From positions 1 through 37,827 of the forward strand of contig CAIWMU010000071.1 in the NCBI GenBank assembly GCA_903913865.1: a DNA stretch of 37,827 nt. Direction: 5' to 3'. Both the position numbers and the translations under genes were made by a program. Source of the DNA: an uncultured Verrucomicrobia subdivision 3 bacterium. GTDB taxonomy: Bacteria > Verrucomicrobiota > Verrucomicrobiia > Limisphaerales > UBA8199. The notes under the pieces were generated by a model that saw nothing but the letters and a program-made list of their open reading frames with translations, did no database searches and was not told the origin of the DNA. Of this stretch, positions 3,453-37,827 are shown piece by piece; positions within the stretch are counted from its first letter, which is position 1; every line of letters begins with the position of its first letter.

Positions 3453-3524
3453 GATGCTCCGGCTCGGAGTGTCAACCTTCCATGCCAACAGTTGCCCAGC
3501 CTTGAGACACCCGGAGCCTGGGGA

Positions 3525-4866: not shown

Positions 4867-4869
4867 CTT

Positions 4870-6116: not shown

Positions 6117-6127
6117 GGAACCCAACG

Positions 6128-6592: not shown

Positions 6593-6814
6593 TGTTGAGC
6601 CTGCCCACCCGACTGGTGACCAATACCATGATCTCTCCCAAGCGCCTCGTTTCGCCCCATCCAAATCTGGCTCCAGTTGTCACTTTCAGGCCAATACCTG
6701 TCCTGTTTCTCGGCATTCGAACGCCCAATCCCCCCATGAAAGAACTTGGCATCGCGATTGCTGTTGAAAGTGTGATTGCCTCCACCCACTAGAGTGGTCC
6801 GTATCAAAGCCAAC

Positions 6815-8371: not shown

Positions 8372-8384
8372 TTGGTTGGACCTA

Positions 8385-8423
8385 CCCTGAGGCCGTTTGC
8401 CGTAACGGCCAAAAGCCTCAGGG
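8385..8423. terminator. Bidirectional hairpin between pilQ and the DUF971 gene
   Basis: A 9-bp perfect stem CCCTGAGGC (8385-8393)/GCCTCAGGG (8415-8423) encloses a second stem GGCCGTT (8391-8397)/AACGGCC (8404-8410). It lies between convergent genes, 13 nt after pilQ and 11 nt past the DUF971 stop. There is an A-run within the loop side (plus strand) but only weak U-tracts outside, so its efficiency is uncertain. Confidence 0.6.
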
Positions 8424-8434
8424 CGGAAATCCTT

Positions 8435-8743
8435 TCATTCCTCGAGAGACTTGGCGAGCGCGTGCAGATACTCGAAGGGATAGAGACCGGTGGCGTGACC
8501 GTCCTTCCAAATGGGCTGGACTGCATAGGAACCGACCCAGTCAATGCGCACCAAAACAAAGGATGACAGTGTAAGGGTTTGCTCCGGCCCTTTGTGCAAC
8601 TGTCCCATCACATCCCGTTCCCCCTGACAGCCCGCACACGGGCAGCGCCGCCGCAGGGTCTCCAGAGGGATAAAGCTCTCGGTCTGGTCCGCCCACTTGA
8701 TGGCGATTTCCTTCCCTATCACTTGCAAGTCCAAAGGTCTCAT
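8435..8743 (-). CDS. DUF971 domain protein
   Basis: This 102-aa protein is a stand-alone DUF971 domain, the domain also found at the N-terminus of gamma-butyrobetaine hydroxylase. Hallmarks are the RRRCPCAGCQGE cysteine cluster (residues ~31-42) followed by WVGSYAVQPIWKDGHATGLYPFEYL. In other proteins this fold binds metal, and stand-alone copies are linked with iron-sulfur metabolism, but the exact role is not established. Its ATG overlaps the stop of the upstream PLP enzyme by 4 nt, so the two are probably co-translated. That pairing with a cysteine-desulfurase-like enzyme is suggestive of Fe-S or sulfur chemistry, which is an inference. Confidence 0.85.
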   Translation of the reverse strand: MRPLDLQVIGKEIAIKWADQTESFIPLETLRRRCPCAGCQGERDVMGQLHKGPEQTLTLSSFVLVRIDWVGSYAVQPIWKDGHATGLYPFEYLHALAKSLEE

Positions 8744-9903: not shown

Positions 9904-9909
9904 GGTAAA

Positions 9910-10911: not shown

Positions 10912-11110
10912 ATTGCGGGTCCGAACGGCGGACCACGAATCAACCTTGCCCTGCCCCCCTCCGGAAAGCAAGCCCCCGGGTGATGTGGCCATGAAACCAA
11001 CAATAGGCGACAAACGGATCTCAAGCCCCGAAAAAAACAGGACCAATTGCGCCAGGATGGTTTCCTGCTTTGAATCAGCCACTGAACGGGTTAGCTTTTT
11101 ATCCGAAACA

Positions 11111-12316: not shown

Positions 12317-12434
12317 GCACCTCCATCCCCTCTAAGGCTGAATCTTTGGGGTAGATCATCAGACAGTTTCCGCTTCGGAACGAACCCTCCTTCCGAGGAC
12401 GTTTTCGCTTTTCAGATGCAGCCCCCGTATTATC

Positions 12435-13838: not shown

Positions 13839-13917
13839 GCACCCGAACCACGATACGCACCGTGCCAGTCAGGATTTTGCGCCTTGCCAAACCCTGTATG
13901 CATTTTACATTCGCACT

Positions 13918-14304
13918 ATGGAATCGACTCAAATAAGAGAGTATCTGCCAGTCTTGATGCTCGTGATTTTGGCGGTGGGGTTTTCCTTCGGGATGCTCCT
14001 ATTCTCTGTGATCGTGGGGAAAAAGGGGCGCCGCCCGGCCATAAAGGACACGGCTTATGAGTGTGGCATGCTCCCCATCGGGGCCGGCAACACCCGGCTG
14101 TCAGTTAAATTCTACCTTGTGGCGATGCTGTTCATTCTTTTCGATATTGAGGTCGTGTTCCTGTATCCTTGGGCTGTTGTTTACAAGGACATGCTCCGGA
14201 CCAATGGCCCCGCCATCCTCGGAGCCATGCTCTCCTTCATGCTCATTCTCTTCGTAGGTTACATCTATGCCCTCAAGAAGAGGGCCTTTGACTGGAAGAA
14301 CTAA
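13918..14304 (+). CDS. nuoA: NADH-quinone oxidoreductase subunit A (NuoA), isolated
   Basis: This 128-aa complex I membrane subunit has three transmembrane helices (~10-32, ~64-86, ~96-118). The conserved loop DTAYECGMLPIG (residues ~44-55) carries the cysteine of the quinone-site loop, and RLSVKFYLVAMLFILFDIEVVFLYPW is the strongest family signature. It is normally the first gene of a nuoABCDEFGHIJKLMN operon, but here it lies alone between mpl and a phosphohexomutase gene, and no other nuo gene is in the window. It has an intact length and key residues, so it is probably functional with partners encoded elsewhere. Confidence 0.95.
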   Translation: MESTQIREYLPVLMLVILAVGFSFGMLLFSVIVGKKGRRPAIKDTAYECGMLPIGAGNTRLSVKFYLVAMLFILFDIEVVFLYPWAVVYKDMLRTNGPAILGAMLSFMLILFVGYIYALKKRAFDWKN

Positions 14305-14392
14305 ACCTGGCGGACCGGCTTACCGGGGAGTTGGACTAGAGAAAACTCCTTCCAACCCACACATAAGATACCACCGTTGACTTAACTTCATC

Positions 14393-15802
14393 ATGGCCAA
14401 CATAAAATTCGGAACCTCAGGTTGGCGTGGGTTGATCGCCCGCGACTTCACCTTCGAAAACGTCCGTCTCGCAACGCAGGGAATAGCGGAATACCTCATA
14501 GAAGCCCCAAGCTCGAAATCAAAAACTGTGATCATGGGGTATGACACGCGATTTTTGGGACGTGAGTTCTCCCTGGCGGCGGCAGAGGTCCTGGCAGCGG
14601 TAGGATTTCAACCCCTCCTTACCGATCGCGATGCGCCAACCCCCGTGATTGCCCACACAATCCGGAAGCGAAAAGCCATTGGCGGCATCAATATGACCGC
14701 AAGCCATAATCCGGCTGAATATCAGGGGCTCAAGTTTTCCACCAGCAATGGTGCACCATCCCAACCGGAGGTCACCCGTCAGGTCGAGGCCAACATAGCC
14801 CGACTGCAACAGGAAAACTGGTCGTTCAAGTCGGCGGTCATCGGCACCTACACATGCAAAACCTTTGACCCCAGGCCGGACTATTTCAAACAGATCAAAA
14901 AACTCATCGATTTCGATGCCATCCGCAAAGGCAGGATGAAGATCGCCGTGGAACTGATGTATGGCACGGGTCGCGGCTACCTTGACACACTTCTCGAAGA
15001 AGCCGGTGCGAAGGTTACCCTGTTTCACAACGAACTGAACCCGCTTTTCGGTGGTCATCATCCTGAACCCAACGCCGAAGGCATGGCGGCAGTCAGTGCT
15101 CTGGTGCGCTCCGGCAAGGCACAACTGGGTCTCGGCCTCGACGGGGATGCCGATCGGTTTGGCATTGTGGATAAAGACGGCACATGGCTCACCCCCAACC
15201 AAATTCTAGCCCTGGCCCTATATCACCTGAAGAAGAACCGGGGATGGACCGGGGCCGTCGTGCGCACGGTTCCAACAAGCCATCAGGTTGACTCTGTGGC
15301 CAACCTTCTCGGGGTGAAAGTTCATGAAACGCCCGTCGGGTTCAAATACATCGGAGCCCTGATGGAAAGTGAGCCGATCATTGTGGGCGGCGAGGAGTCC
15401 GGCGGCCTCAGCGTCAAGGGGCATGTCCCAGAGAAGGATGGCATACTTGCCTGCCTTTTGATGGCTGAACTGGTGGCAACGGAAGGAAAGCCTTTGGGAC
15501 GCATTCTCAAGGAGCTCGAGAAGCAGACCGGTCCGTTCTTCACAGACCGGATCAATGTTGCCATCCGGCCCGAAACCAAGGATGCCCTGTTAGCCAAGCT
15601 TGGCTCCGGCCTTGCGAAGATTGGTTCGTTCCCTGTGGAGAAGTTCATCACAACGGACGGCTACAAGTATCTGCTGCCCGGCAACGAATGGGTTGCCTTT
15701 CGCGCTAGCGGAACAGAACCCCTGGTTCGCTGCTACATTGAGGCGAAATCCGGGGCCCACTTCAAAAAACTGCGTCAAGCGTGCACCGCTCTGCTGGGGT
15801 AG
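14393..15802 (+). CDS. Phosphoglucomutase/phosphomannomutase family enzyme
   Basis: This 469-aa alpha-D-phosphohexomutase interconverts hexose 1- and 6-phosphates in the cytoplasm. Opening motif FGTSGWRGLIARDFT (residues 6-20) binds the substrate. The catalytic phosphoserine is in MTASHNPAEYQG (S104), the Mg2+ loop is LDGDADRFG (249-257), the sugar loop is VGGEESGGLS (~335-344) and the C-terminal phosphate-binding loop is FRASGTEPLVRCY (~438-450). All four hallmark loops are intact. Sugar specificity (glucose, mannose or glucosamine) cannot be assigned from sequence alone. It probably feeds cell-envelope or storage polysaccharide precursors. Confidence 0.92.
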   Translation: MANIKFGTSGWRGLIARDFTFENVRLATQGIAEYLIEAPSSKSKTVIMGYDTRFLGREFSLAAAEVLAAVGFQPLLTDRDAPTPVIAHTIRKRKAIGGINMTASHNPAEYQGLKFSTSNGAPSQPEVTRQVEANIARLQQENWSFKSAVIGTYTCKTFDPRPDYFKQIKKLIDFDAIRKGRMKIAVELMYGTGRGYLDTLLEEAGAKVTLFHNELNPLFGGHHPEPNAEGMAAVSALVRSGKAQLGLGLDGDADRFGIVDKDGTWLTPNQILALALYHLKKNRGWTGAVVRTVPTSHQVDSVANLLGVKVHETPVGFKYIGALMESEPIIVGGEESGGLSVKGHVPEKDGILACLLMAELVATEGKPLGRILKELEKQTGPFFTDRINVAIRPETKDALLAKLGSGLAKIGSFPVEKFITTDGYKYLLPGNEWVAFRASGTEPLVRCYIEAKSGAHFKKLRQACTALLG

Positions 15803-15849
15803 TGGTGACCTGAATAACCTCCTGTTCGAAATCGGGCGCCTTGAGAACT

Positions 15850-17904
15850 TCAAAAACTCTCAAGCACCAGATCCGTCAGGAAATCAGCCCAATCGACTCC
15901 AATGTTCTCCTTGAGTTCGTAGGATTTTGCGAAGTCCGGCTCGAACAAATCTTGGCGGACAGACCGGGCAAATTCAGGGTCGGACGAAGCAATATTGTTT
16001 TCGCGGCAAAGCCGGAGGCTCAGATGATTGAGGTTGGCAGACCCAACACAAGACCATCCATCCACCTGTAGAGCCTTGACGTGTGACATCCCGGGATAGA
16101 AGAACACCCTAACTCCGTGGGCCATGAGGTAGTTCGCCGTCACCAGATTGCTCCGTGCCCCAGCCTTGAAATCGTTCACCCTCGGCAGAATCACCCGGAC
16201 GTCCACACCTCGCCGACGTGCCCGAACCAATTCCCCCGTCACCCGCTTGTCGAACAGGTAGGGATTTTCTACGTAGATATGTTCCCTGGCCATCCCGATC
16301 GCCGCCAGAACCGCCGTGTTCATCGGCTTCCAACCGGTGCGTGTTGGTAGAAGACGCACTGGCACCCAATTGCCAACCCCAGGGTTGTGATGCTCGAGTG
16401 GAGCAAGCACTGCGATGGCGTAAGCCAGATCTCCAAACAGCCCCTCGTGGGCATACAGTCTGCGGAAATCCTCCTCAAGGGAAGATACGACCGGCCCCCG
16501 AACCTCCACCATGAGATCATGCCACTCATACCGGTATTCCCTTCCCAGATTCATCCCCCCAAGCCAGGCCCTCCAACCATCCACGATCACCATCTTGTTG
16601 TGGTCCGAACTGAACCATGGATTCAAAAACGACCTGGTCCCCACAGCGGGGGGGCTTTTTAGAAAGGACTGCATCGAGGAGGGGGATTCAAAATCCACCG
16701 GCAGGGGGGTCGCGGGCGGGGACACCCCTCCTGCCCAGGTTCCCATACGGTCAACAACCACCTTCACCGGGATGGATCGTGACTTTTCCTTCAACTGCCG
16801 GGCAACGTCTACGCCCACGTCATCCCGATCAAAGATATACATATCCACCGAGACATGGTTGGTTGCGGCAGTGATCGCATCTTTCAAGCGGGGAAAGTAT
16901 CTGTCACCATCAATCAGCAATTCCAAAGTCCCCTGCTCTACCTTCGTTCCAGTGTGTCCGTCCAGCCACTGCTCCCAGTCTGCCAGATTCATCCCCTCCT
17001 GCCCGGGGGTGATCAATCCCGGTCGGATGGCTTTTGGACGGGGCCACCGTAGGAACCGCCAGGCTGTTTGCACTCCAAAATCGACCAGCCGGGCTGCAGA
17101 CGAGAAAGGATTTTTTATTAACGCCAGACCATGCCCCTCCACTACAAGGGCACTCAGACTGTCGAGTGTGGCAGCCATATCCATGCCCATTTCGGTGCGG
17201 TCATACAATCCAGCCGGGGAAAGCCAGACACACCTGCGCTTTGCCAGATCCAGAAGGAGGCAAGTGGTGTATTTTCCGGGTTCGGGAAGCATGAGAAGGA
17301 AAAAGCCCTCCCCGGGATGAGTTCGAGTGAGTTCACTCTCGAAGCGTTCAGCCAGTGCGCTGACAGTTTCATGAATCGAATAGCGGTGGTCTATCGCGAG
17401 ATCGGCCGGGAGTGAACCCAACTCCGCGGATCGCACGGCGCCGTTCGTATCCCGGTATAGCACGCCATCGGCCAGAAATGATTGATAATACATCCCATGA
17501 CCGGAAGTTCTTGGAACAAGGTCATCCATCACGACCGAGGAAACCCGCTGAAGGTCCACGCCACCGATGACCCGCGCCTGCCGCCAGTGTTCCTGAAGCG
17601 CGGGCGTGTCGTGGGAGTCTCTTTCCAACTTTAACTGGGCCGAAAGAATCTTGAAATCAGGGGTTGGAACCCTCAGTTTGCTCCAGTCCCCACGATACTC
17701 AACCGCATTCGCTCCATGACCAAAGAGCATCCGCACATCATTCCCCTTAACAAAAGCGCGGGGAAGACCATTCGTCGCTGTCAGATCGCGCCATTCATTC
17801 AGGGCGGTCTGGCGTGGAGACCTCAACTTTGGATCCGAATTTGCAGCCATCCCCCACGTGCAGAGCATCACACACAGCCAACTCAGAAAAACACGGCAGC
17901 CCAT
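15850..17904 (-). CDS. Exported phospholipase D-like protein with two HKD motifs
   Basis: With the ATG at 17904 the product is 684 aa; a GGGAGGGAG Shine-Dalgarno ends ~5 nt upstream and a signal peptide follows (MGCRVFLSWLCVMLCTWGMA). Residues ~30-320 form an N-terminal region I do not recognise. Residues ~328-660 form a PLD/cardiolipin-synthase-type double domain with two intact HxKxxxxD motifs: H435/K437/D442 (SSDHNKMVIVDG) and H608/K610/D615 (MSHVKALQVDG), plus GSANLNHLSL. The reaction is probably phosphatidyl transfer or phosphodiester hydrolysis, but outside the cytoplasm, unlike ordinary cardiolipin synthase, which is membrane-anchored without a cleavable signal. The open frame extends upstream to 18234, but that part lacks a ribosome binding site. 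Confidence 0.85.
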   Translation of the reverse strand: MGCRVFLSWLCVMLCTWGMAANSDPKLRSPRQTALNEWRDLTATNGLPRAFVKGNDVRMLFGHGANAVEYRGDWSKLRVPTPDFKILSAQLKLERDSHDTPALQEHWRQARVIGGVDLQRVSSVVMDDLVPRTSGHGMYYQSFLADGVLYRDTNGAVRSAELGSLPADLAIDHRYSIHETVSALAERFESELTRTHPGEGFFLLMLPEPGKYTTCLLLDLAKRRCVWLSPAGLYDRTEMGMDMAATLDSLSALVVEGHGLALIKNPFSSAARLVDFGVQTAWRFLRWPRPKAIRPGLITPGQEGMNLADWEQWLDGHTGTKVEQGTLELLIDGDRYFPRLKDAITAATNHVSVDMYIFDRDDVGVDVARQLKEKSRSIPVKVVVDRMGTWAGGVSPPATPLPVDFESPSSMQSFLKSPPAVGTRSFLNPWFSSDHNKMVIVDGWRAWLGGMNLGREYRYEWHDLMVEVRGPVVSSLEEDFRRLYAHEGLFGDLAYAIAVLAPLEHHNPGVGNWVPVRLLPTRTGWKPMNTAVLAAIGMAREHIYVENPYLFDKRVTGELVRARRRGVDVRVILPRVNDFKAGARSNLVTANYLMAHGVRVFFYPGMSHVKALQVDGWSCVGSANLNHLSLRLCRENNIASSDPEFARSVRQDLFEPDFAKSYELKENIGVDWADFLTDLVLESF

Positions 17905-18252
17905 GCCACTCCCTCCCGTCAGCACAGTAGGCGGGAGTGGGGGGTGGTGAGACCGTTTCCCACCCGCGAAAGCACATTCATTAACGCCTACCAGATCCAA
18001 CAAGAAATCCCGAAGGACTACTACCCGGCCAACCATGGAGCCGGGCAGCGTCTTGATGGGGTTTGCACATCCCACGAATTTGTGAAAAGTCGTGGAATGA
18101 ATCCCCTCGCCCGGGACCACTTTGCCAACCGATCTGCCTGATTTTCGTCCTGAGTTCAACAACCTCCTTGGCATACTCTTGGATCCGCCCCGGGTCAAAC
18201 TCAATCCCAAGAGCGGTTTGACCCGAAGGAACATTTCCTACAAGCTGATGGC
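17905..18252. other. Divergent intergenic region between the PLD gene and aroC
   Basis: This 348-bp region must carry both outward promoters. The only clear structure is the inverted repeat next to the PLD start (17906-17940). No convincing gene is seen on either strand, and no strong sigma-70 pair could be picked by eye. Confidence 0.5.
17906..17940 (-). promoter_or_regulatory. Hairpin that can mask the PLD gene ribosome binding site
   Basis: On the plus strand CCACTCCC (17906-17913) pairs perfectly with GGGAGTGG (17933-17940). An alternative register pairs CTCCCG (17913-17918) with CGGGAG (17932-17937). Read on the minus strand, one arm of either stem contains the purine-rich Shine-Dalgarno just before the ATG at 17904. 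Regulation by RNA folding is possible but inferred. Confidence 0.4.
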
Positions 18253-19332
18253 ATGGCAAACACATTTGGGCACCTGTTCCGCATATCGACCTGGGGAGAA
18301 TCCCACGGTGGCGGGGTTGGAGTGGTGATTGACGGCTGCCCTCCAGGTTTGTTGTTGTCCGAAGCGGATATCCAGCCGGACTTGGATCGAAGGCGCCCCG
18401 GCCAGAGCAAAATCACCACCCCTCGAAAGGAGTCCGATACTGTCCGAATCTGCTCGGGAGTTTCGGAGGGAAAAACCCTCGGAACTCCGATCTGCATGCT
18501 CGTGAACAACGAGGACGCCCGTTCTGAAGCCTATTCAGAAATGGCCACAAAATTCCGTCCCTCACACGCTGATTTCACCTATCAGGCCAAGTTTGGCATC
18601 CGCGCCTGGGCCGGAGGTGGCCGGTCAAGCGCCCGTGAAACGATAGGGCGCGTGGCAGCCGGTGCTGTTGCAAGAAAGCTCCTGCGCGAACGCCACCACG
18701 TTGAAGTGCTCGCATGCGTCTCACAGGTCCAAAACATCACCTGCCTCATCAACCCAGAGACCGTTTCGAGTAAAGATATCGAGGACAACATCGTCCGCTG
18801 CCCGGATCCGCGGAAAGCCGTGGAGATGATCCGGTTGATCGAAGAAGTCAGGAATGAAGGCGACACTGTGGGAGGCATCGTCACCGGCATCCTCAGAGGA
18901 GTTCCGGCTGGCTGGGGAGATCCTGTCTTCGACCGCCTGGAAGCAGACTTGGCGAAGGCGATGCTCAGCTTGCCCGCATCCAAGGGATTTGACATAGGGA
19001 GCGGATTCGATTGCGTGAAACTGCGTGGAACAGAACACAACGATCCCTTCCGGTCAACGGATGGAAGGGTTCATACCACCAGCAACCGATCCGGAGGTGT
19101 TCAAGGGGGGATTTCCAACGGGGAAACCATCTCCTTCAGAGTGGCATTCAAGCCCGTTGCCACCATCATGCACGAGCAGGACACCGTCGATGCTGAGTTT
19201 CGAAATACTACGATCAAAGGCCGGGGACGCCATGATCCCTGTGTGCTTCCCCGGGCTGTCCCCATAGTTGAAGCCATGGCCGCCCTTGTGTTGATCGACC
19301 ATGCCATGCGGCACAAAGCCCAGTGCGGATGA
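18253..19332 (+). CDS. aroC: Chorismate synthase
   Basis: This 359-aa enzyme catalyses the last shikimate-pathway step, EPSP to chorismate, using reduced FMN. Signature motifs are all present: [20 protein letters not shown] (residues ~13-32), [41 protein letters not shown] and the C-terminal [19 protein letters not shown]. Length is typical of the monofunctional bacterial enzyme. The ATG at 18253 gives the canonical start [19 protein letters not shown]. It heads a compact aroC-aroK-queG cluster, 45 nt before aroK. Confidence 0.97.
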
Positions 19333-26849: not shown

Positions 26850-28283
26850 CTATTCCTTCTCGTGAATGACATCATGAACCTTCGCACCACCCATCGGATG
26901 ATGTGGGTCAGCCTGTGGAATCACGCCCTTAACCTCGGAGATGGCGATCATGGGCAGAAACCGAAGGAACAACAGGAACATGGTGAAAAACAACCCGAAA
27001 GTTCCCAGATAGGTGAGCATATCCACAATGCTCGGACTGAAATAGCCCCAGCTGGAGGGAAGGAAATCCCGGTGCAACCCGATGACGATGATTACAAACC
27101 GTTCAAACCACATCCCGACATTCACCACAATTGAAAGGATGAACACAGCCACCAGATTCTGTCTGAACCATTTGAACCAGAACAACTGGGGCACCACAAC
27201 GTTGCAGCCAACCATCAGCATCCAACCCCACCAGTATGGTCCGAGGGCCCGATTAATGAAGTGAAACCGCTCGCTCGGATTGCCACTATACCAGGCAATG
27301 AAAAACTCCATCGCATAGGCATAACCGACGATTGTGCCGGTTGCCAGCGTCACTTTGCACATGATGTCGATGTGACGCATGGTGATCAGATCCTGAAGCT
27401 TGAAAATCGATCGAATCGGAATCAAGAGGGTCAGAACCATCCCGAATCCGGAAAAGATGGCCCCGGCTACAAAGTATGGGGGGAAGATCGTTGTATGCCA
27501 GCCGGGCAACTGGGAAACGGCGAAATCCAAAGAAACGATGGAGTGAACCGACAGCACCAGAGGTGTCGACAACCCGGCAAGAAGGAGGTAGGCCTTTTCA
27601 TAGTTGCTCCAATGCCGGTTGGAACCAGTCCACCCCAGCGAGAAGAGACCATACATAAATTGACGAACCTTCGTCTTTGAACGGTCCCTGAGCACTGCAA
27701 GATCAGGAATGAGTCCCATATACCAAAACAGCAGGGAAACCGTGAAGTAGGTCGAAACTGCAAACACATCCCACATCAGCGGACTCCTAAACTGGGGCCA
27801 CATGGTGTAGGTGTTCGGAATCGGGAAAAGCCACCAGTCATACCACATCCGACCGACGTGCAACGCCGGATAGATGCCGGCGCACATCACGGCAAAAATC
27901 GTCATGGCTTCCGCCGCACGATTGACAGCTGTCCGCCATTTCTGACGCAGCAGGAAAAGAATCGCCGATATCAAGGTTCCAGCATGGCCGATGCCGATCC
28001 ACCAGACGAAATTGATGATGTCCCATCCCCACATCACAGGATGCATGTTGCCCCAGACACCCACCCCGGTGGAAATCTGATAGCTCAACATGAACAGCAG
28101 GAGACCCAGAAGCGAAACGCTGGGAACGAAAAGAATCCACCACCAGACGGGTGTCTTGCCTTCCGTCAGGCCAGCAACGCGGTCAGAGATCCATCCGAAG
28201 CTGTGGTAATTGGAAACGAGGGGAATCCGCCTCAACTCGCGGGGCGGTTCCGGGACAGTAATCGGTGTCACGTTCGCAGCCAT
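26850..28283 (-). CDS. actC: Alternative complex III subunit ActC (NrfD-like)
   Basis: This 477-aa integral membrane protein of the NrfD/PsrC family has ~10 helices and is the likely quinol-oxidising membrane core partner of ActB. Motifs include [34 protein letters not shown] (key: [24 protein letters not shown]), [50 protein letters not shown] (key: [20 protein letters not shown]) and a long C-terminal hydrophobic hairpin. Its ATG overlaps the actB stop by one base (TGATG). The length and gene order match ActC. Confidence 0.95.
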
Positions 28284-31200
28284 CAGTGCGCTCCTTTCTG
28301 CTCCATGTGTCCCTCGATGTGACCATGGCCAGCTTCATGAGGCTTGGCACCGTGTATGAATGGATCTCCCATTTTCTGCTCGTAATATTGGAAGCTCAGC
28401 GGAGCCTCCTGGTAATCCGGCATCGCCGGGTTGGGGTTTCTCACGCGAGCCAGATATGTGATTCGCGGACGGGTGTTGAGAAAATCAAGCACCGTGTAGT
28501 CCCTCTCAGATTCCTTTGCCTTTGAAACCCGGCTCTCAGGATCTGCAACATTGCCGAATAGGATCGCCCCGGCAGGACAAGCCTGGGCACACGCGGTTGT
28601 GAATGTCCCATCAGGAACGGTGACATCGCTGCTTGAGCCGGCTTTCACCTTCTGCGCGATTTTGGCCTGCTCGATCCGCTGTATGCAGAAAGTGCATTTC
28701 TCCATCACGCCGCGCATCCGGACGGTTACATCCGGGTTCTTGATCATTTTGATCAGATCCCACTCATCATCCTTGCGCTGGCCGAACGGCCCCTTGTAGA
28801 GGGCATCAAGAGGCCGTTTGTTGTAATCGAAATAGTTAAAACGACGGACCTTGTACGGACAGTTGTTTGAACAATACCGGGTGCCAACACACCGGTTGTA
28901 GACCATCAGATTCAAACCCTCCTGATCATGAATGGTGGCGTTCACCGGGCAGACGCTCTCGCAGGTGGCGGCCTCGCAGTGCTGGCACAGCATGGGCTGT
29001 GTCACTGCCTGCGGATCATCCACCCACTCCTCAAACTGCTGCTGCGACTCTGCGTGATAGGTGTCCGCAAACTTGCGCTTCGAGGGAATCCCGCTGAAAT
29101 AGCGGTCGATCCTTATCCAATGCATCTCCCGACCGCGCTTGACCTGGTCCTTGCCAACAATCGGAATGTTGTTTTCGCTCTGACAAGCAACCATGCAGGA
29201 TGAACATCCAACACATAGGTTCAGGTCAATGGACATTCCCCACTGGTGATGTCCCGTTTCCTTGAGCTTGTCAAACGGGTTGGGATAAAGCGACCCGGAA
29301 CCCTCCGGCTCTGGAAGCTGAAGGCGTTTTGCGAAATCGGGATGGGCACGATACTGGTTGAGATTAGCCTCCCGGACAATGGGACGGCCTTCCATGGACC
29401 AGTGGTCCTGAGTGCATGCAATCGTGTAGGTCTTGCCGGTGGCGGCAACGGTGGCCCCAACCACGATGCTATCGGTGCCAGCCCTCAGTGCATAGGCATT
29501 GAACCCGGCCTTCTGACCAACCCGACCTGTGCGCTCACGCCCATATCCCAGTGCAAGCCCAAGGGAGTAGTCTGCGGATCCCGGCTGGACCCAGATGGGT
29601 CCCAGAATGCTCCGTCCACCGACCTTGATCTCAACGACCTCACCATTTTTGACTCCCAATTCCTGGGCTGTCTTGCGGCTCACCAGAACGGCATTATCCC
29701 ACACCATCTTCGTGATCGGATCTGGCATCTCCTGAAGCCATCCGTTGTTGGCATATCGGCCATCATCAAGACTGTAATCGCGATGAAAAACGACCTCCAA
29801 CCGATCCTTGGTGGGCAACTGAAGCTTCAGTCCTGCGATTGCCCCCGTGAGCGCGGCGCCCTGGAAACTGGCGCTGACGGGCTTTCCGGCAGAATTCGCA
29901 AGGAATCCATCGTGCAACAACCGCTTCCAGGCCCCCTCGAAATCACCCGAACCAACGATTCCGCCGAAGGTCTGGCGAACAATCTCATAGGGGCTTGTCA
30001 CCGCCAAACCACCAACCCGGGCCAGAACCTCCAGCTCAGTCATCCCACCGAACAAGGGGGAAATCAATGGTTGAACCGGGAGCAAAGATCCGTCAGTCGC
30101 CCGGGCATCACCCCAGGATTCCAGATAGTGTGCAGCAGGGAGGTGCCAGTTGCATTTTGCAAATGTTTCGTCTTCGTAATAGCCGAGACGAATTATCTGC
30201 TTCGCTTTGGCCATCGCTGTGGCAAAACCAAGGTCTGCAGGAGCGGTAAAAACAGGATTTCCGCCGAGGATGACCAAAGTCTGCACTTCCCCTGCGTTCA
30301 GTGCACCAGCCAGATCGGCCAGTGATCCACACTTGGGACTTGAAGAATCAAGGAGGACCACGGTCTCTCCCACATTCCCAAGGGCGCTGTTTATCGCAAA
30401 AGCCAAAAGGTGAACCGCCAGCGGCTGCCGGTAACCGGCAACGACCAGACACTTGCCCTTGTGGGCAAGCAGATCACGGGAACATTCCAAAATCCACTTT
30501 TCGTCGACACCAGCTGGTTTTCCCAACGACGCCAGTCCTGCGGGAGCATCACCCCCAAGCACCTGTGCGGCAATAGCACCAGCCACTTGTGCAACCGCAG
30601 TGCTACTGATGCGGAGCCGATGATCAGCGCTGACGCCAGTCAGGGTCATCAGACTCTCTACCGCATACAAACGATTGAGACCCTCACCGCCCTTCTCAAC
30701 TTTTCTCCTCACGGAGAACTTGCGGATGTTGTTGTGAACATCCTCCTCGGAGCCGATGAAATCACAGTCCAGAGAAAGAATGACGTCCGCCTTTTCGTAG
30801 CGGAACAGCGGTTTGACACCCTTCCCAAAAGCAATGGATGCAGCACGAGCTGAGGTGCTCAGGTCCACCGCCTCGTCCATAAACCAGCGGGCCTTGGGAA
30901 GCCGCAGGCTGAGCATTTCCTGAAGTCTGTCTCTTGAAGGCGAACTGCTTTGTTCAAGGAGCAGGCAAAGACCAGCACCACCGGATTCAGCCGTCTGACG
31001 TGCTAATACAGAAAGCGCGTCGGTTGTCTCTTCAACGGAACGAACGTTGCCGTTCTGCTTGATGCTGATTGCCCGGTCTGGATCATAAAGGTTCAGGATC
31101 GATGCCTGAGCAAACCTGTCTGATCCTCCGTTGCTGTCCGGATGGAGAGAATTCCCCTCGATTTTGACAGGCCGCCCCTCATGGGATTTAACAACCAGCG

Positions 31201-31531
31201 GCACCGCCCCACCACGGGTGGGCATGGAGGTGGCATAATACTCCGGAACTCCGTGAACATAATTTTCCGGTGTCTTGGAAAACGGAAGAATTTTTTGTTG
31301 GGGACGGCGGCACCCTGTGGCTCCCAGACCGAGACCGGCCAGAAGAAAGGATGCTGACATGATCTTGACGAAGTGCCTGCGAGACACCGGGTCAGTCAAC
31401 TCGCTCGCTCCCTCGGGAAACTCGCGCTCCATCCATTGGCGGAATTCGGGCTTGTCAGCCAGTTGGTCAAGGCTGCGCCAGTAGGTTCGCCCGGCTTCAG
31501 GTTCCGGACAGGCAGGAGGAATCGTTTTCAT
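28283..31531 (-). CDS. actB: Alternative complex III iron-sulfur subunit ActB (fused B1-B2)
   Basis: With the ATG at 31531, overlapping the actA stop as ATGA, the product is 1082 aa. The N-terminus carries a twin-arginine motif (SRRHFVK, R51-R52) and a lipobox-like LGATGC (C74), so it is probably Tat-exported and lipid-anchored. The N-terminal ~700 residues form a molybdopterin-oxidoreductase-like domain, which in known ACIII has no Mo cofactor. The C-terminal part has ferredoxin-type clusters: [60 protein letters not shown] and [11 protein letters not shown], consistent with four Fe-S clusters. It relays electrons from quinol to the ActA hemes. Confidence 0.96.
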
Positions 31532-32196
31532 CGGTGACACGCGGAGCAGGTCTGCAGGGACTCAACCTTGAGGTCTTTCACCAGTTTTTCACCGTGCAGT
31601 TTCTGGAGGCGGGCAGCTTCCTGGGGATCCTGACTCCACTTCCAATTCAGGTCTGTAATCTTGTCTTGAGGACGTATCTTGGCTGCCGGGTTGCGATGGC
31701 ATTCCAGACAGAAGGGCATGCTCAAGGGTTTCTCCTGGAAGACCTCTTCCATTTTGTTCAACTGGCCGTGACATTCGAAGCAGCTGATGCCACGATTCAC
31801 GTGAACGGAGTGGTTGAAGTAGACATAGTCGGGAACCCTATGAATCTGAATCCAGGGAATCGATTTTCCACTCTGAGCCGTCTCCCGCACCAGAGCCAGC
31901 CGGGAATCCTCCTTGAGGACCTGATTGTGACAATTCATGCAGGTTGAGCTTCCCGGCACGTTTGAATACCAGGCCCGCTCAACATCATCATGACAATAGC
32001 GACAGTCGACCCCCAATTGTTCGGCGTGGGTTGCATGTGAAAAGGCAACCGGTTGAATGGGCTTGTAACCCACCCTCGCGTAATTGGGGGACACATAATA
32101 CCAGACACCCGCTGCAAGGGCGCTGCCAACAAGCAGCACCCCCGTGATTATGATCAGCGGGAGCCGATTCGTCCACTTAGGGAAAATGGCTGACAT
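31528..32196 (-). CDS. actA: Alternative complex III pentaheme cytochrome ActA
   Basis: This 222-aa periplasmic multiheme cytochrome is anchored by an N-terminal helix (~12-33). Five CxxCH sites are visible: C65RYCH, C86MNCH, C139FECH, C163LECH and C217SACH, matching the pentaheme ActA of known ACIII. The N-terminus MSAIFPKWTNRLP is typical. It is the first gene of the operon; no strong Shine-Dalgarno precedes the ATG. Its stop is coupled to actB by a 4-nt overlap. Confidence 0.95.
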   Translation of the reverse strand: MSAIFPKWTNRLPLIIITGVLLVGSALAAGVWYYVSPNYARVGYKPIQPVAFSHATHAEQLGVDCRYCHDDVERAWYSNVPGSSTCMNCHNQVLKEDSRLALVRETAQSGKSIPWIQIHRVPDYVYFNHSVHVNRGISCFECHGQLNKMEEVFQEKPLSMPFCLECHRNPAAKIRPQDKITDLNWKWSQDPQEAARLQKLHGEKLVKDLKVESLQTCSACHR

Positions 32197-32586: not shown

Positions 32587-35500
32587 CTATTTCCCGCTCA
32601 CTCCCTCCAGCCACTCAAGGGGCGGCAGTGCATAGGGTCGGAATGTTTCGAGGCTGCCCTCATGCGCATTATAGTAGAGGGCACGGTGCATGCCCAGAAT
32701 GCTCGCACGGGGGCTGTCGATAAGACTTGCAGAATCGTTTACACTCATCTGGAACAAAACCCGCATCTCAAACTCGCTCAACACCTTCCGGCTGAGGAAC
32801 CTGGCCACATTGTTGTATGTGTCGCACGTGGCGATCACATGGATTCCCAGACGGGCCCCCTCCGAAACAAGGGATGAGAGCACTGCCCCCGGGTTGGGTT
32901 CGCCACTGCTTCCACCCGAGAATCCAAAATCCTCCTCATAGCGCAGACGACCAAACTTCTGCAGGGCGTTAACGAACAGGAATACCGGTGGAAGATCAAC
33001 CCCATCAACGGCTTCCGTCCGACGCTTTAACTCCGCGTCCAATCCGGCCATCAAGGCACCAATTTCACCAGGCTTTACGAATTCAATGTTCTGGCTGGCC
33101 GACTCGGCAACCCGATCAAGATAATTCCGTTCGGGAGTCCCCGGACCCGATGTGTCGCATAAGATCAGCCGGCAACCACCCTTCGGATGTTGGGCACCCA
33201 GCGAAAGCAGTCCAAGGGCAACGAGGGCAAGGACCGTCTCATCCCGCTGTCCCACCATGAGCAGGTGGCTCCCGCTCTGCCGCTGGAAGATTGCCTCCGT
33301 TGGCCCCTTGATGGAATTCGGGGCTCCCATCCACCATCGAGCCGCTGGAGGAGCATCCACCGGATTGGAATTCAAAACACTGGACAACTGCCTGTTCTCT
33401 GAGACATCCGCAGGAGCATTTCCCTCAAAGACAACAGGTTCCGCCACCTCCACGCCCGCAGCAGCAGCATGTTCAGTGACCTTCGAAAGGTATTTGTCCC
33501 GTATGGCATCGGGCAGCCAGACCACCTGGAAAGGGCTGTTTCCCTGAATTGCCCCGGCCGCGTCGTTGTAGATCCCTTCCCCGGGCCGTGACAAAAGCCG
33601 GGGGGCTGGATTGGAATCATCCATGATCAGATAGGCGTCGGCCTCATTACACTGGAGGGCAATTCTGACCACCATCTGTCCAAGGGTTGTCCTTGCCACG
33701 GTGTAGGCACCTCCCAGGGTTTGGGAGCCCAGCAGCACATGAATGCCAAAGGCACGCCCCTGACGGACGATTCTGTCCAACAGCAGCGATGCCGTCTGGG
33801 CAATCTTATCGTCCTCAACAAAGAACTCCTGAAACTCGTCAATGATCAGGAGCGAACGGGGAATCTTTTCCGTCCCGCCGGAACGTTTGTATCCTGGAAT
33901 ATCCTGCACGCCAAGTTTGCGGAAGAGGTCGCCCCGTCGACGCAACTCGTCATCCACACGTTGCAGGACACTGAGGGCAAACTCCCGGTCGCTCTCGATT
34001 GCAACGACTCGTGCATGGGGCAACTTCTTTGCTCCATAACACTTGAACTCCACCCCCTTTTTGAAGTCCACAAGATAAAATTCAATCTGGTCCGGGCTGC
34101 ACCAGAGCGCCAGGTTGGTGATGACGACATGGAACAGTGTTGATTTTCCAGAACCCGTCTTTCCGGCAATCAACCCGTGCTGACGCGTCCCCTTGCCCAG
34201 TTCGAGATACTGCAGCTTGGTCGCCCCGGTTCGCCCGATCGGCACGCGCAACTCGCTCGTCGTATCCTGGGACCACACCTCCCCCGCCCCCGGCATCACA
34301 TGCTCGAAAGGAACCTCGACCCTCATCGAATCACGGCTGCTCCGGCCGACGCGGTTGACAAGTTCGATCGCCAGATCCGCTACGGGTGGCGCCTCAAGGG
34401 AAACTTGAATCCCGGGCGCTGGCTTGCCTTGAAGCAAAGTTTGCCCATCCCTCAAGCTGAGACAAAGGGAACTTTTCCGGAGTTCATCCGGAATAAAGTC
34501 CTGCGGCAGGGGCATCCTCCGGTCCCAATGAATCAACGTGTAAACGCCGCACCGGGCACCGCTGGTCGCGATGCTCATCAGTCGCTTGGCCGCCACATCG
34601 CTGAAATTGGCGGGAAAATCCGCAACCACGAGAAAATGGTATTTTTCAGCAATCACACCAGCCTGCTCGTTGTATTCCGCGATCGACTTGTATTCGTTGC
34701 GCAGATACATCTGGATGACTTTCTCCATGTGCTCATTGAGTTCTCCCAGTTTCTGCTCGATCTGGCCGCTCTGGGTCCAGATCCGGCTGTTAATTAACTG
34801 CTCCTCATAATCGGCAAGATGCATGACACCGGCAAAATTCTGCCCCAAACCCACAGGATCCAGCACCGTGAATACCACCCGCCCGGGAGGAACACTGGAT
34901 ATGAGGCGCAGAATCACATTGTTCAGGGCCTCAACCGCGACCGACTGGTTCGTCCCTTCGGTCTCGATCAACAACGATCCCTGATCAGGAAATCCGAGGC
35001 ACAGCGGGAGGGCGAAATCCGGCCCCATGGGCATTTGAAAACGCGGATCAACCACTGCGGGTATTTCACAGAGGGAGGGCATATGGATCTGTAAATTCCC
35101 GAATCGGGCCGCCTGGGCAAAGGAAACTGGCGGAACCCAGGCCCGTATTCCGGCAGAATCCCACGCTGGAAAGATGTCCGCACCCAGCCGGTTTACCGCA
35201 GCGATGGACTCAAAGGCGGGAATCACCCGCTCATTCCATTCGACGCTCAGCACCTGCAACGCTTTCTCAACCTCGGCCTCCAGCCGTTTAACCCCATCGT
35301 TTGTCTCACCCTTCAACCGTTCAGATCTCTCAACCCCCTTGTCGCCTGAATCCTTCAGCTGCTGCCGGTAGTCTGCCTCGATCTTCGCCTGCCACCTTCG
35401 ATACAGATTTTCATGCCTCTTATTGACCCGCACCACCTTCGCATCGGCACCCATCCGGCAGGATACCCTCGCGTCACTAGCCCGCAACATCGCCTGCTTC

Positions 35501-36459
35501 AGATCCTGCTCCGCACTGGTGACAGTGGTATTGAACTCTGTGAGGATGCGTTGCTGTTCCTGCTCGAAACCGGCAGTGGCAAGGGCATAGGATGCGTTTT
35601 CAAAGCCCCTTGCCTCATTCAACTTTCTCACCAAACCACGAGCCCTGGGTAGGGACGACCGTTGCGCCAGGTATCTGGCCAGAAGCGCACACAGAACCAC
35701 CCCTGCCCCGATCGCAGCCGCCGCCGGGTAAGTCAGGCGCTCTGCACCCGCCAGTTTCAACACGGGAGGCAATCCGCAGGCAAGGATGCCGAGGACGATC
35801 CAAAGGGCTGGATACCGGAAAAGCTTCAGCAGAAAATTCCCCTTGAAATCGTGGACCTCCCGACCCAGTTCCGCATTCATCAGCTGCAACTGGCCCAGAA
35901 CCGACTGCTCGCCCCCCCGCTGCTGGGATGAGCCCCCCGGTTCAGTTTGGTGCAGACCGACCCCAAAAGCCGGATAACCTATGAACGCTGCCTGCGCTTC
36001 TGTCTCAAGACGGGCGAGAATCTGCTGTTCCAGTCCCAGAGCCGCCTTGAACTCCTCATAACGCTTTGCGTTTTCCGCAAGCTGCTGTCCCCGGTCACGC
36101 TCTGCCTGCAGACTGCGCTTCTGGAGTTCATACCTCTTCGCCCCAATCCGGTCATCAATCTGTTTGACCCGCTGTTCCTTGCTCGACTGGTAGCACCTGC
36201 CGATCAGTTTCTTGCGGTTCTCAAAATTTGCAGCGGCAGCAGCCAGTTTGGCAACCCGATCAGCCTCCGCCGTGCTGATCGCTTCGGAGGTTCGGGCAAC
36301 GCTCTCATCCAGAGCGGCCTGGCCGCGCTGACGCTCTCTCGAGCCCTTCAAAGTCAACTCACTTTTTGCCTTGGTGGCACGGTTGATGATGCTTTGAACA
36401 TCTCGTTTGAGTGTGTTCAACAACCCCAGAACGTTGTTTGCGGAAAGTTCCTTACTCAC
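32587..36459 (-). CDS. FtsK/SpoIIIE-family ATPase of a type VII-secretion-like operon
   Basis: This 1290-aa protein has a GTG start that overlaps the previous stop by 8 nt. Order of parts: N-terminal coiled coil (~1-160), two adjacent transmembrane helices (~217-236 and ~244-266), a second coiled coil (~275-425), then three FtsK/SpoIIIE-type modules. The first (~475-690) lacks a P-loop. The second (~735-985) is intact, with Walker A GKTGSGKST (766-774), Walker B SLLIIDEFQE (869-878) and IHVLLGSQT. The third (~1040-1280) has GQRDETV where Walker A should be and IHVIATCDT as the sensor strand. Two TM helices plus three ATPase modules recall EccC/EssC, the motor of type VII secretion, but there is no FHA domain. 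Co-encoded WXG100-like proteins support a secretion role. Confidence 0.85.
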   Translation of the reverse strand: MSKELSANNVLGLLNTLKRDVQSIINRATKAKSELTLKGSRERQRGQAALDESVARTSEAISTAEADRVAKLAAAAANFENRKKLIGRCYQSSKEQRVKQIDDRIGAKRYELQKRSLQAERDRGQQLAENAKRYEEFKAALGLEQQILARLETEAQAAFIGYPAFGVGLHQTEPGGSSQQRGGEQSVLGQLQLMNAELGREVHDFKGNFLLKLFRYPALWIVLGILACGLPPVLKLAGAERLTYPAAAAIGAGVVLCALLARYLAQRSSLPRARGLVRKLNEARGFENASYALATAGFEQEQQRILTEFNTTVTSAEQDLKQAMLRASDARVSCRMGADAKVVRVNKRHENLYRRWQAKIEADYRQQLKDSGDKGVERSERLKGETNDGVKRLEAEVEKALQVLSVEWNERVIPAFESIAAVNRLGADIFPAWDSAGIRAWVPPVSFAQAARFGNLQIHMPSLCEIPAVVDPRFQMPMGPDFALPLCLGFPDQGSLLIETEGTNQSVAVEALNNVILRLISSVPPGRVVFTVLDPVGLGQNFAGVMHLADYEEQLINSRIWTQSGQIEQKLGELNEHMEKVIQMYLRNEYKSIAEYNEQAGVIAEKYHFLVVADFPANFSDVAAKRLMSIATSGARCGVYTLIHWDRRMPLPQDFIPDELRKSSLCLSLRDGQTLLQGKPAPGIQVSLEAPPVADLAIELVNRVGRSSRDSMRVEVPFEHVMPGAGEVWSQDTTSELRVPIGRTGATKLQYLELGKGTRQHGLIAGKTGSGKSTLFHVVITNLALWCSPDQIEFYLVDFKKGVEFKCYGAKKLPHARVVAIESDREFALSVLQRVDDELRRRGDLFRKLGVQDIPGYKRSGGTEKIPRSLLIIDEFQEFFVEDDKIAQTASLLLDRIVRQGRAFGIHVLLGSQTLGGAYTVARTTLGQMVVRIALQCNEADAYLIMDDSNPAPRLLSRPGEGIYNDAAGAIQGNSPFQVVWLPDAIRDKYLSKVTEHAAAAGVEVAEPVVFEGNAPADVSENRQLSSVLNSNPVDAPPAARWWMGAPNSIKGPTEAIFQRQSGSHLLMVGQRDETVLALVALGLLSLGAQHPKGGCRLILCDTSGPGTPERNYLDRVAESASQNIEFVKPGEIGALMAGLDAELKRRTEAVDGVDLPPVFLFVNALQKFGRLRYEEDFGFSGGSSGEPNPGAVLSSLVSEGARLGIHVIATCDTYNNVARFLSRKVLSEFEMRVLFQMSVNDSASLIDSPRASILGMHRALYYNAHEGSLETFRPYALPPLEWLEGVSGK

Positions 36460-36658
36460 AATCTTTCTTTATCCGGCTGCTTAGCTTGTCGATCTGCTCC
36501 ATCACGGTCAGTGCCCGCTCAACACTTGCAAACAATTCGTCCATATATTTGGCTTCGAACTCCAAGGCTTTGGCGTCGCGCCAGGATTCTCTGGTCTGCA
36601 GCCACTGAACCTTCAATTCTTTGGTAACCCCCGAAAGTCGGCTGATATGGGCGCTCAT
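36452..36658 (-). CDS. Small helical protein with a WXG100-like WxD motif
   Basis: This 68-aa, highly charged, all-helical protein has no signal peptide. It contains ESWRDAKALEFEAKY, whose W26, D28, F34 and Y38 have the same spacing as W43, D45, F51 and F55 of the WXG100-like protein two genes upstream. It may be a shortened partner or paralogue of that protein, which is my inference. Its ATG overlaps the upstream stop by 4 nt and its end overlaps the FtsK-type start by 8 nt, so it is embedded in the operon. Confidence 0.7.
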   Translation of the reverse strand: MSAHISRLSGVTKELKVQWLQTRESWRDAKALEFEAKYMDELFASVERALTVMEQIDKLSSRIKKDCE

Positions 36659-37182
36659 GGGTTGCCTTGAAGATCGGGATGTCCGGATTGATGGCTGATT
36701 GTCCCCAATCCCCCTGCCTCCGAATAGGCCGCCAAGGTCGTTATGACCTGATTCAGATGGGCCATTGCCTGAACCATGTCACTGCATAGCACCGTATGCA
36801 CTTTCTCCGTTTGCTTGAGGAGAGGGGCCACCAGATTCTCAAACTCACGGCTCCAGTGTTTCACCGCACGGAGTTTGTTTTCAACCTCCTCAAGCGCCCG
36901 TTTGCACCTTTGCACCTGAAGAAACTCGGCTGATGTCTCCTTGCGCAGATTTCCAATGCGCGCACTGAAGAGGGCCGCCTGCGCCTCCTCCAACTGCTTC
37001 GACCGGCGTCGAAACTGACCCTCCCAATGAATTCGCTGATCATTCTCAAGCCAGTTCCTCAGCCTGACCACATCTGCGCTCACCTCCTCAATCGCGGGTC
37101 GCGCTTTTGCAACGTAAACAATCAACTGGCTTCGAAACTGCTCGATCGCCTCAGTCGATGTGATGTGTGCCCCCTGCGACAT
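36655..37182 (-). CDS. Helical protein of the WXG100-FtsK operon, unknown function
   Basis: This 175-aa cytoplasmic-type protein is predicted to be almost entirely alpha-helical and coiled-coil up to ~residue 155, followed by a short Gly/Ser/His/Pro tail. Notable features are IEQFRSQLIVYVAKARPAIEEV, RLRNWLEND and HWEGQFRRRSKQLEEAQ, which includes a WEG tripeptide (W53-G55), and a KHWSREFENLVAPL segment. I do not recognise a named family. Its position between two WXG100-like genes suggests a chaperone, a co-secreted partner or a larger WXG-type protein. It starts 3 nt after the WXG100-like gene. Confidence 0.75.
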   Translation of the reverse strand: MSQGAHITSTEAIEQFRSQLIVYVAKARPAIEEVSADVVRLRNWLENDQRIHWEGQFRRRSKQLEEAQAALFSARIGNLRKETSAEFLQVQRCKRALEEVENKLRAVKHWSREFENLVAPLLKQTEKVHTVLCSDMVQAMAHLNQVITTLAAYSEAGGLGTISHQSGHPDLQGNP

Positions 37183-37185
37183 GGC

Positions 37186-37458
37186 TCAGCGCTGGTTCAG
37201 ATATTCCTCGATGCGCTGGGCCTTTCGCAGGAGGTAGGGTGTGTGCTGATTTGAAACCTCCACGAAGCGCTTCAGGGTCTTCATGGTCTGGCGGAACTCC
37301 TCGGCGAACTTCTCATGCTCCTGATCCTGCCAGGTATCACTCACCGAACTAAAACGCGCCTGCAGGGCGGCACTCTTCTCCTGCAGTTCTATGTTGAACC
37401 GCTTCAACTCTTCCGCAAATCGGCGGACCTGTTCCGGATCCATTATTGCCTGTGCCAT
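37186..37458 (-). CDS. WXG100-family-like protein (type VII secretion substrate type)
   Basis: This 90-aa protein has the WXG100 size and pattern: helix 1 (PEQVRRFAEELKRFNIELQEKSAALQARFSSV; key F14, F21, L33), a turn with TWQDQEH (W43, the WxG position occupied by WQD), and helix 2 (KFAEEFRQTMKTLKRFVEV). No signal peptide is present, as expected. The C-terminal end (LLRKAQRIEEYLNQR) lacks the YxxxD/E export motif of mycobacterial partners. An in-frame ATG at 37443 is an alternative start. It is the first gene of the four-gene operon, following a strong hairpin and glnA. Confidence 0.82.
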   Translation of the reverse strand: MAQAIMDPEQVRRFAEELKRFNIELQEKSAALQARFSSVSDTWQDQEHEKFAEEFRQTMKTLKRFVEVSNQHTPYLLRKAQRIEEYLNQR

Positions 37459-37634: not shown

Positions 37635-37659
37635 CCTCTACTATACGTCATAGTAGAGG
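37635..37659. terminator. 10-bp hairpin spanning the glnA stop codon
   Basis: CCTCTACTAT (37635-37644) is complementary to ATAGTAGAGG (37650-37659) with a 5-nt loop ACGTC. It covers the last codons and stop (37641-37643) of glnA. It could stabilise the mRNA 3' end or assist termination together with the GC-rich hairpin further on. Confidence 0.45.
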
Positions 37660-37827
37660 AAAAACTCATATGGATGCGGGCGCAAGCGCAGGGCATCGTG
37701 CTCCTTGCGCTTGGTCGAAATCCACATGTCCAAAAAGTCCTTGGTGAACACGTCGCCCTTGAGCAGGAATTCGTGATCCGCTTCCAGCGCATCCAGTGCC
37801 TCACCGAGGCTCCCGGCCACATTCGGA
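37641..37827 (-). CDS. glnA: Glutamine synthetase type I, C-terminal fragment
   Basis: Only the last 61 codons are in the window; the 5' part lies beyond the right edge. Read on the minus strand the frame gives [55 protein letters not shown] and FLYYDV followed by TAG. The [13 protein letters not shown] block and the RxRPHPYEFxLYYDV ending are hallmarks of bacterial GlnA (glutamate plus ammonia plus ATP to glutamine). The adenylylation-site tyrosine region lies outside the window. It is upstream of the WXG100-FtsK operon on the same strand, separated by ~180 nt with two hairpins. Confidence 0.93.

What the first reader, a model, noticed from the sequence alone, without database searches (positions are those of the whole stretch)
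32587..37458. Minimal type VII-secretion-like operon (WXG100 + FtsK ATPase) in a probable Verrucomicrobiota genome
Seen: four tightly linked minus-strand genes encode a 90-aa WXG100-like protein, a 175-aa helical protein, a 68-aa helical protein and a 1290-aa FtsK/SpoIIIE-type ATPase with two TM helices and three ATPase-type modules. Known: WXG100 substrates plus an EccC/EssC-type ATPase are the two universal parts of type VII secretion, a monoderm system. Inference: this is a stripped-down export or membrane-associated system of a diderm, with no EccB/D/E, EsaA/EssA/EssB, mycosin or LXG toxin in view. The coiled-coil N-terminus in place of FHA domains sets it apart.
Basis: partly seen in the sequence, partly recalled or inferred. 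Interest (0 to 1): 0.8.

Follow-up and report, generated by a model that had tools for sequence, protein, structure and literature searches.

The report
Four-gene WXG100/EssC-like operon in Verrucomicrobiota
About half of the sampled genomes in one order of outer-membraned Verrucomicrobiota bacteria carry a small, strongly conserved set of four genes that looks like a cut-down cousin of the type VII protein-secretion machine of Gram-positive bacteria, and it gives a compact system for asking whether such machines also export proteins in bacteria with two membranes.

Summary
Four minus-strand genes (32587-37458) encode a WXG100 protein (90 aa), a helical-hairpin protein (175 aa), a small second WXG100-like protein (68 aa) and a 1290-aa EssC-like ATPase. 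The operon is not a one-off: 73 of 75 Verrucomicrobiota loci with enough upstream DNA carry all four genes in the same order, nothing else is conserved around them, and within the order the ATPase tracks rpoB (Mantel r 0.77). The ATPase has a membrane hairpin and three RecA-like modules, of which only the middle one has a P-loop (59/59). Its modelled fold matches EccC/EssC across modules better than FtsK. By phylogeny it lies outside both, in a third clade with WXG100-linked ATPases of TerY-P/CoCoNuT-type loci, Helicobacter, Rhodococcus and Deinococcus. That wider kind was already described (H. pylori HP0062/HP0066; Type III-A CoCoNuTs). New here: the stand-alone, vertically inherited, membrane-anchored four-gene form, and the 175-aa protein, homologous to the N-terminal part of a larger protein in the Rhodococcus locus. 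Protein export is the best guess, not shown. Verdict: new variant of a known kind.

The parts
37186..37458 (-). Gene 1: WXG100 protein, 90 aa, with W-x-D at the turn (W43, D45, F51 invariant)
   Evidence: Pfam WXG100 over cut-off; 85% mean column identity in 24 relatives; best solved-structure match H. pylori HP0062 3fx7, E 1.5e-9
36655..37182 (-). Gene 2: 175-aa protein, one long helical hairpin (helices 6-76 and 80-160) with a variable tail
   Evidence: AlphaFold2 pLDDT 90; conserved in 75 of 80 named loci; profile matches the N-terminal part of a 314-aa Rhodococcus protein
36452..36658 (-). Gene 3: 68-aa second WXG100-like protein, W26-x-D28-x5-F34 and C67 invariant in 54 sequences
   Evidence: Alignment A7; TIGR03930 most frequent profile match, 12 of 54
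32587..36459 (-). Gene 4: 1290-aa EssC-like ATPase: coiled coil, TM hairpin, coiled coil, three RecA-like modules
35680..35808 (-). TM hairpin of the ATPase (residues about 218-260)
   Evidence: Hydropathy in 24 relatives
33490..34290 (-). Middle ATPase module with Walker A (GKTGSGKST, about residues 766-774) and Walker B (DE, 874-875)
   Evidence: P-loop and DE motif in 59 of 59 for this module, P-loop in 0 of 59 for the other two

Best explanation
The operon encodes a stand-alone, membrane-anchored relative of the type VII secretion core. Proposed mechanism: the ATPase sits in the inner membrane by its TM hairpin and works as a hexamer driven by the single active middle module. Modules 1 and 3, which have lost their P-loops, act as docking and gating surfaces. 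The WXG100 protein and the small WXG-like protein form helical-hairpin dimers (with themselves or each other) that dock on the ATPase and switch it on. The 175-aa hairpin protein is the cargo, or the cargo adaptor, moved across or into the inner membrane. Shown by computation: gene content, order, conservation, homology, fold, module activity pattern, membrane segments. Inferred: hexamer, dimerisation, docking, direction of transport, export itself and the nature of the cargo.
For: Four genes in fixed order in 73 of 75 informative loci and nothing else conserved around them. WXG100 profile over cut-off and a known homologous hairpin dimer, HP0062. Second WXG-like protein. Multi-module fold closest to EccC (4nh0, E 4.6e-35 over 950 columns) and EssC, ahead of FtsK at 3.7e-16. 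TM hairpin. Only the middle module active. Plasmid searches with WXG alone and with the ATPase alone meet at the same loci. Gene 2 is homologous to the N-terminal part of a larger protein beside a related ATPase, and related loci carry nuclease and immunity-type genes at the same position. WXG is the most conserved part (85%), as expected of a machine part rather than a variable effector.
Against: No secretion data. The ATPase is outside the EccC/EssC clade. No conserved Y-x-x-x-D/E signal in WXG (inspection). No EccB/D/E- or EssA/B-type partner is conserved nearby. No known outer-membrane route. Related ATPases without TM segments show that the clade need not always export.
Confidence: 0.45

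Rival explanations
1. A non-secretory defence or stress module: a membrane-tethered WXG/ATPase assembly that senses phage or envelope stress and acts inside the cell, like the WXG/FtsK cassettes built into TerY-P and CoCoNuT loci.
For: The ATPase clade includes TerY-P and CoCoNuT-type relatives; carried by only about half of the genomes of the order.
Against: No TerY-P, nuclease or other defence gene is conserved next to it; mostly vertical inheritance and single copy; no polymorphic C-terminal domain on gene 2.
Confidence: 0.25
2. An envelope or division scaffold: the ATPase, coiled coils and hairpin proteins build an inner-membrane structure rather than move a cargo.
For: Long coiled coils and hairpins, strong conservation, no toxin domain.
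Against: An active P-loop module kept in 59 of 59 and the EccC/EssC-like multi-module fold point to a pump.
Confidence: 0.15
3. A DNA pump (FtsK-, HerA- or conjugation-like) that happens to sit beside helical proteins.
For: The middle module aligns to FtsK at Z about 30 and to TcpA at Z about 28.
Against: A separate FtsK-type match (847-aa frame, G000:C106) exists in the genome and falls in another clade. No relaxase or mating genes are conserved nearby. Modules 1 and 3 are degenerate; WXG100 linkage in several phyla.
Confidence: 0.08

Closest known systems
WXG100/EssC-like cassette of TerY-P and Type III-A CoCoNuT loci (Bell et al. 2024, PMC11090510, citing Anantharaman et al. 2012)
   Same: EssC-like ATPase with three modules and only the central one active, N-terminal coiled coil, two WXG100-type proteins, same clade of ATPase
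   Different: Here the ATPase has a TM hairpin; no TerY-P triad, no nuclease fusion, no DNA-mimic protein; an extra 175-aa hairpin protein; stand-alone and vertically inherited
H. pylori HP0062/HP0066 'WXG100 secretion system' (PMC4978471, PMC3397514)
   Same: Gene 1 is closest to HP0062 among solved structures, with the same W-x-D turn, and an FtsK-type ATPase lies in the cluster
   Different: Helicobacter-type loci carry a WHH nuclease and SUKH-1 immunity-type gene and an ATPase without the N-terminal TM hairpin (from the related plasmid locus)
Type VII secretion, EccC/EssC (T7SSa, T7SSb and the subtypes c-j of PMC11217815)
   Same: WXG100 protein plus a TM-anchored multi-module FtsK/SpoIIIE-family ATPase; best fold match over several modules
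   Different: ATPase in another clade, one module fewer, no FHA domains, no YukD in the genome, no known partner subunits nearby, only the second module active
FtsK/SpoIIIE DNA translocase
   Same: Middle module fold and P-loop
   Different: Different clade, extra degenerate modules, operon with WXG100; an FtsK-type gene is present elsewhere in the genome

Membership tests
Type VII secretion system | WXG100 family protein encoded in the locus | tested here: met
   PF06013 over cut-off; HP0062 and EsxB structures matched
Type VII secretion system | Membrane-bound FtsK/SpoIIIE-family ATPase with tandem modules of EccC/EssC type | tested here: met
   TM hairpin; three modules; Foldseek best match EccC and EssC over several modules
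Type VII secretion system | ATPase belongs to the EccC/EssC family proper | tested here: not met
   Tree: EccC/EssC apart with 97/94 support; NCBIfam EccC/EssC cut-offs not reached.
Type VII secretion system | YukD/EsaB-type ubiquitin-like partner | tested here: not met
   No PF08817 match in the own genome; control B. subtilis rings
Type VII secretion system | Subtype-specific membrane partners (EccB/D/E, EsaA/EssA/EssB) | tested here: inconclusive
   None conserved within 9 kb; the genome was not searched for each family
Type VII secretion system | C-terminal Y-x-x-x-D/E export motif (T7SSa) | tested here: not met
   Inspection of the alignment of gene 1
Type VII secretion system | ATPase-dependent secretion of the WXG100 protein | not testable with these tools
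   Needs an experiment
TerY-P / CoCoNuT-associated WXG100-EssC-like cassette | EssC-like ATPase with only the central module active and an N-terminal coiled coil | tested here: met
   59 of 59 for module 2, 0 of 59 P-loops for modules 1 and 3; definition from PMC11090510
TerY-P / CoCoNuT-associated WXG100-EssC-like cassette | ATPase without transmembrane segments | tested here: not met
   TM hairpin in the Verrucomicrobiota ATPases, none at that place in L160, L170, L171
TerY-P / CoCoNuT-associated WXG100-EssC-like cassette | Neighbouring vWA/kinase/PP2C genes and coiled coil-nuclease protein | tested here: not met
   No such conserved neighbours
FtsK/SpoIIIE DNA translocase | Active module clusters with chromosomal FtsK | tested here: not met
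   FtsK rows apart, 96/96 with SspH-like and Paenibacillus rows

The most novel reading that the evidence does not exclude
A dedicated protein-export machine of diderm bacteria, related to but separate from type VII secretion: a third WXG100-ATPase lineage in which a single membrane ATPase plus two WXG100-type proteins suffices to move a hairpin protein across the inner membrane, inherited vertically in Verrucomicrobiota and used for cell physiology rather than toxin delivery.
Probability: 0.35. Interest if true: 0.8.

Novelty: new variant of a known kind. Interest (0 to 1): 0.56.

Why it matters
Type VII secretion is described mainly from Actinomycetota and Bacillota, with many membrane partners that differ between systems. 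A four-gene, single-copy, strongly conserved version in a diderm phylum could define a minimal core (one ATPase, two WXG100-type proteins, one hairpin protein) and would test whether WXG100/EssC-like pumps export proteins in cells with an outer membrane. It also ties scattered loci (the Helicobacter type, TerY-P/CoCoNuT cassettes, Rhodococcus and Deinococcus plasmids) into one ATPase clade.

Tried and rejected
Chance neighbourhood: rejected by 73 of 75 conserved loci; of the two exceptions L076 lacks genes 1-2 and L094 lacks gene 1, and no run of N explains it. Phage origin: no relative of gene 1 confirmed in viral contigs. Plain FtsK or conjugation protein: rejected by tree and by coverage of the fold match. 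Known defence system: PADLOC hits fall on the shared ATPase module or are weak. Homology of gene 2 to genes 1 or 3: not supported. Homology of genes 1 and 3 by profile comparison alone is weak and rests on the shared W-x-D-x5-F spacing and TIGR03930 matches. Homology of gene 2 to the Helicobacter and Caballeronia nuclease-type proteins: not supported. A first rpoB congruence test used wrong frames and was redone. Foldseek of gene 2 found nothing significant. In the VIA-align second look no conclusion is drawn from families that are not listed. A search centred on another phylum was not possible, so presence of exactly this four-gene form outside Verrucomicrobiota is untested; the genome-contig scan kept 80 of 582 relatives. 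Whole-genome download was not available.
Full report
Check of the observation. The window is contig 71 (37,827 bases) of a 6.27-Mb Verrucomicrobiota genome assembly. The four genes lie at the stated places on the minus strand: WXG100 37186-37458, 175 aa 36655-37182, 68 aa 36452-36658, ATPase 32587-36459. Genes 1 and 2 are 3 bases apart, genes 2 and 3 overlap by 4 bases and genes 3 and 4 by 8, a layout typical of translational coupling. Pfam places gene 1 in WXG100 over the curated cut-off and gives the ATPase FtsK_SpoIIIE. NCBIfam ranks EccC and EssC profiles first for the ATPase (1.6e-33, 2.5e-26, 4e-26, against 2.4e-7 for FtsK), but far below their cut-offs.

Conservation. Of 40 genomes searched (the own one included), 27 others have a long match to the ATPase, 47-73% identical in the best segment, and two more hold fragments (my count). 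In the fetched neighbourhoods the other three genes recur in the same order; no gene outside the four is shared by more than five loci within 9 kb. In 80 loci from named genomes (Pedosphaera, Limisphaerales, Verrucomicrobium sp. BvORR106, Spartobacteria LR76, Roseibacillus, Akkermansiaceae, Lentisphaerae) 73 carry all four genes in order on one strand; five of the rest are contig ends and two (L076, L094) are exceptions. The WXG gene was found in 97 of 196 genomes of the order, one copy each except in one genome with two, and in 17 of 289 genomes drawn evenly from the phylum (three of those 17 matches are weaker or belong to other loci). ATPase and RpoB distances agree within the order (20 genomes, Mantel r 0.77, p 0.0002), so inheritance there is mostly vertical. 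Mean column identities are 85% for WXG, 62% for the 68-aa protein, 58% for the ATPase and 52% for the 175-aa protein.

The small proteins. Gene 1 has W-x-D rather than W-x-G at the turn, with F eight residues after W. Its best match among solved structures is H. pylori HP0062 (3fx7, E 1.5e-9), a helical hairpin dimer with a W-R-D turn (PMC3397514). Gene 3 keeps W-x-D-x5-F with the same spacing in all 54 sequences, plus an invariant Cys near its end. TIGR03930 (WXG100_ESAT6) is its most frequent profile match, in 12 of 54. Direct profile comparison of genes 1 and 3 is weak, with the W-x-D turns aligned. I read gene 3 as a second WXG100-like protein, with moderate confidence. Gene 2 is modelled as one long helical hairpin at pLDDT 90. 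No solved structure matches significantly. Its profile aligns over its ordered length with the first 142 residues of a 314-aa protein beside the ATPase on a Rhodococcus plasmid (score 37.9; 200 shuffles reach at most 18.9, 57 coiled-coil or helical controls at most 22.1). That protein has a further C-terminal part in which Pfam recognises nothing. The own genome has no second copy of gene 2.

The ATPase. It has a coiled coil, a TM hairpin (about residues 218-260), a second coiled coil and three RecA-like modules. P-loop and DE motif occur in module 2 of all 59 sequences; modules 1 and 3 have no P-loop in any. Foldseek ranks EccC of Thermomonospora curvata first (4nh0, 4.6e-35, 950 alignment columns), then two-module structures of EccC and EssC, then FtsK (3.7e-16). 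VIA-align 2 gives FtsK Z about 30 on 276 residues, EssC 28.8 on 493 and EccC 27.7 on 747 (at rmsd 13 because module orientations differ). The multi-module plan is that of EccC/EssC. A tree of the active module separates three groups: EccC/EssC (97/94), FtsK with SspH-like proteins (96/96), and a clade (100/97) that holds the Verrucomicrobiota operon (itself 100/98), TerY-P type ATPases, Helicobacter, Rhodococcus and Deinococcus. Branches are long and the root is unknown, so which of the other two groups is nearer cannot be said.

Relatives elsewhere. A tblastn search of 72,556 plasmids with the WXG protein alone returns three records, Caballeronia, Helicobacter and Rhodococcus; all three are among the five best by the ATPase. 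In Caballeronia the order is vWA, WXG100, 436-aa protein (helical part plus, by my reading, a nuclease-like C-terminus), 113 aa, 76 aa, ATPase, CARF, vWA, PP2C, kinase. A Verrucomicrobiota genome (G251) carries both this type (L160) and the four-gene operon (L161). In the Helicobacter plasmid a WHH nuclease and a SUKH-1 immunity-type gene lie between WXG and the small gene before the ATPase. These loci make export of effectors by the wider clade plausible, but do not show it.

Known or new. WXG100 plus FtsK in H. [quoted passage not shown] Bell et al. 2024 describe EssC-like ATPases with only the central domain active, an N-terminal coiled coil and two WXG100 proteins in Type III-A CoCoNuTs, without TMs, and quote an earlier remark that the cassette occurs as a stand-alone system (PMC11090510). 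Gram-positive subtypes c-j are catalogued in PMC11217815. I found no held paper on such a system in Verrucomicrobiota; Sutcliffe 2011 and Anantharaman 2012 are not held, so an earlier mention there cannot be excluded. New relative to what I could read: the TM-anchored ATPase in this clade, the four-gene stand-alone form, its vertical inheritance in one order, and the 175-aa protein with its Rhodococcus homologue.

Mechanism. Best guess (0.45): an inner-membrane pump driven by the middle module, docked and switched on by WXG-type dimers, that moves or assembles the 175-aa hairpin protein. Export, dimers, hexamer and cargo are inferred. Rivals: a defence or stress module (0.25), an envelope scaffold (0.15), a DNA pump (0.08).

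Noticed in passing
L171 (Helicobacter sp. NHP19-012 plasmid) 2541-10136: A DnaK/actin-like gene (my reading), two unknown genes, WXG100-like, helical-WHH nuclease, SUKH-1 immunity-type protein, 77-aa protein and FtsK-type ATPase in a row: looks like a toxin-immunity set built into a WXG100/ATPase locus of a diderm.
   Followed up: partly
L160 (G251) 8666-19003 and L161: One Verrucomicrobiota genome carries both the four-gene operon and a TerY-P type locus (vWA, WXG100, helical-nuclease-like protein, small protein, ATPase, 592-aa protein, vWA, PP2C, kinase).
   Followed up: partly
L169 (Deinococcus actinosclerus plasmid) 7348-12587: 142-aa protein with a C-terminal TM segment, FtsK-type ATPase (947 aa), then two WXG100-like proteins and two helical proteins: here the membrane anchor seems to be a separate gene.
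   Followed up: partly
L172 (Rhodococcus sp. AH-ZY2 plasmid) 6489-11919: ATPase of the same clade with an N-terminal TerD domain, followed by a 314-aa protein whose N-terminal part is homologous to gene 2, a 73-aa protein and a WXG-like protein.
   Followed up: partly
window 28283-32196: Tat-type iron-sulfur/molybdopterin-like protein and a multihaem cytochrome c downstream of the operon, by eye an alternative complex III cluster; not conserved next to the operon in relatives.
   Followed up: partly
window 37641-37826: By eye the C-terminal end of a glutamine synthetase, same strand, upstream of the operon and cut by the contig end.
   Followed up: no
L076 and L094: Two loci keep the ATPase but lack genes 1-2 (L076) or gene 1 (L094) although upstream DNA is present.
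   Followed up: partly
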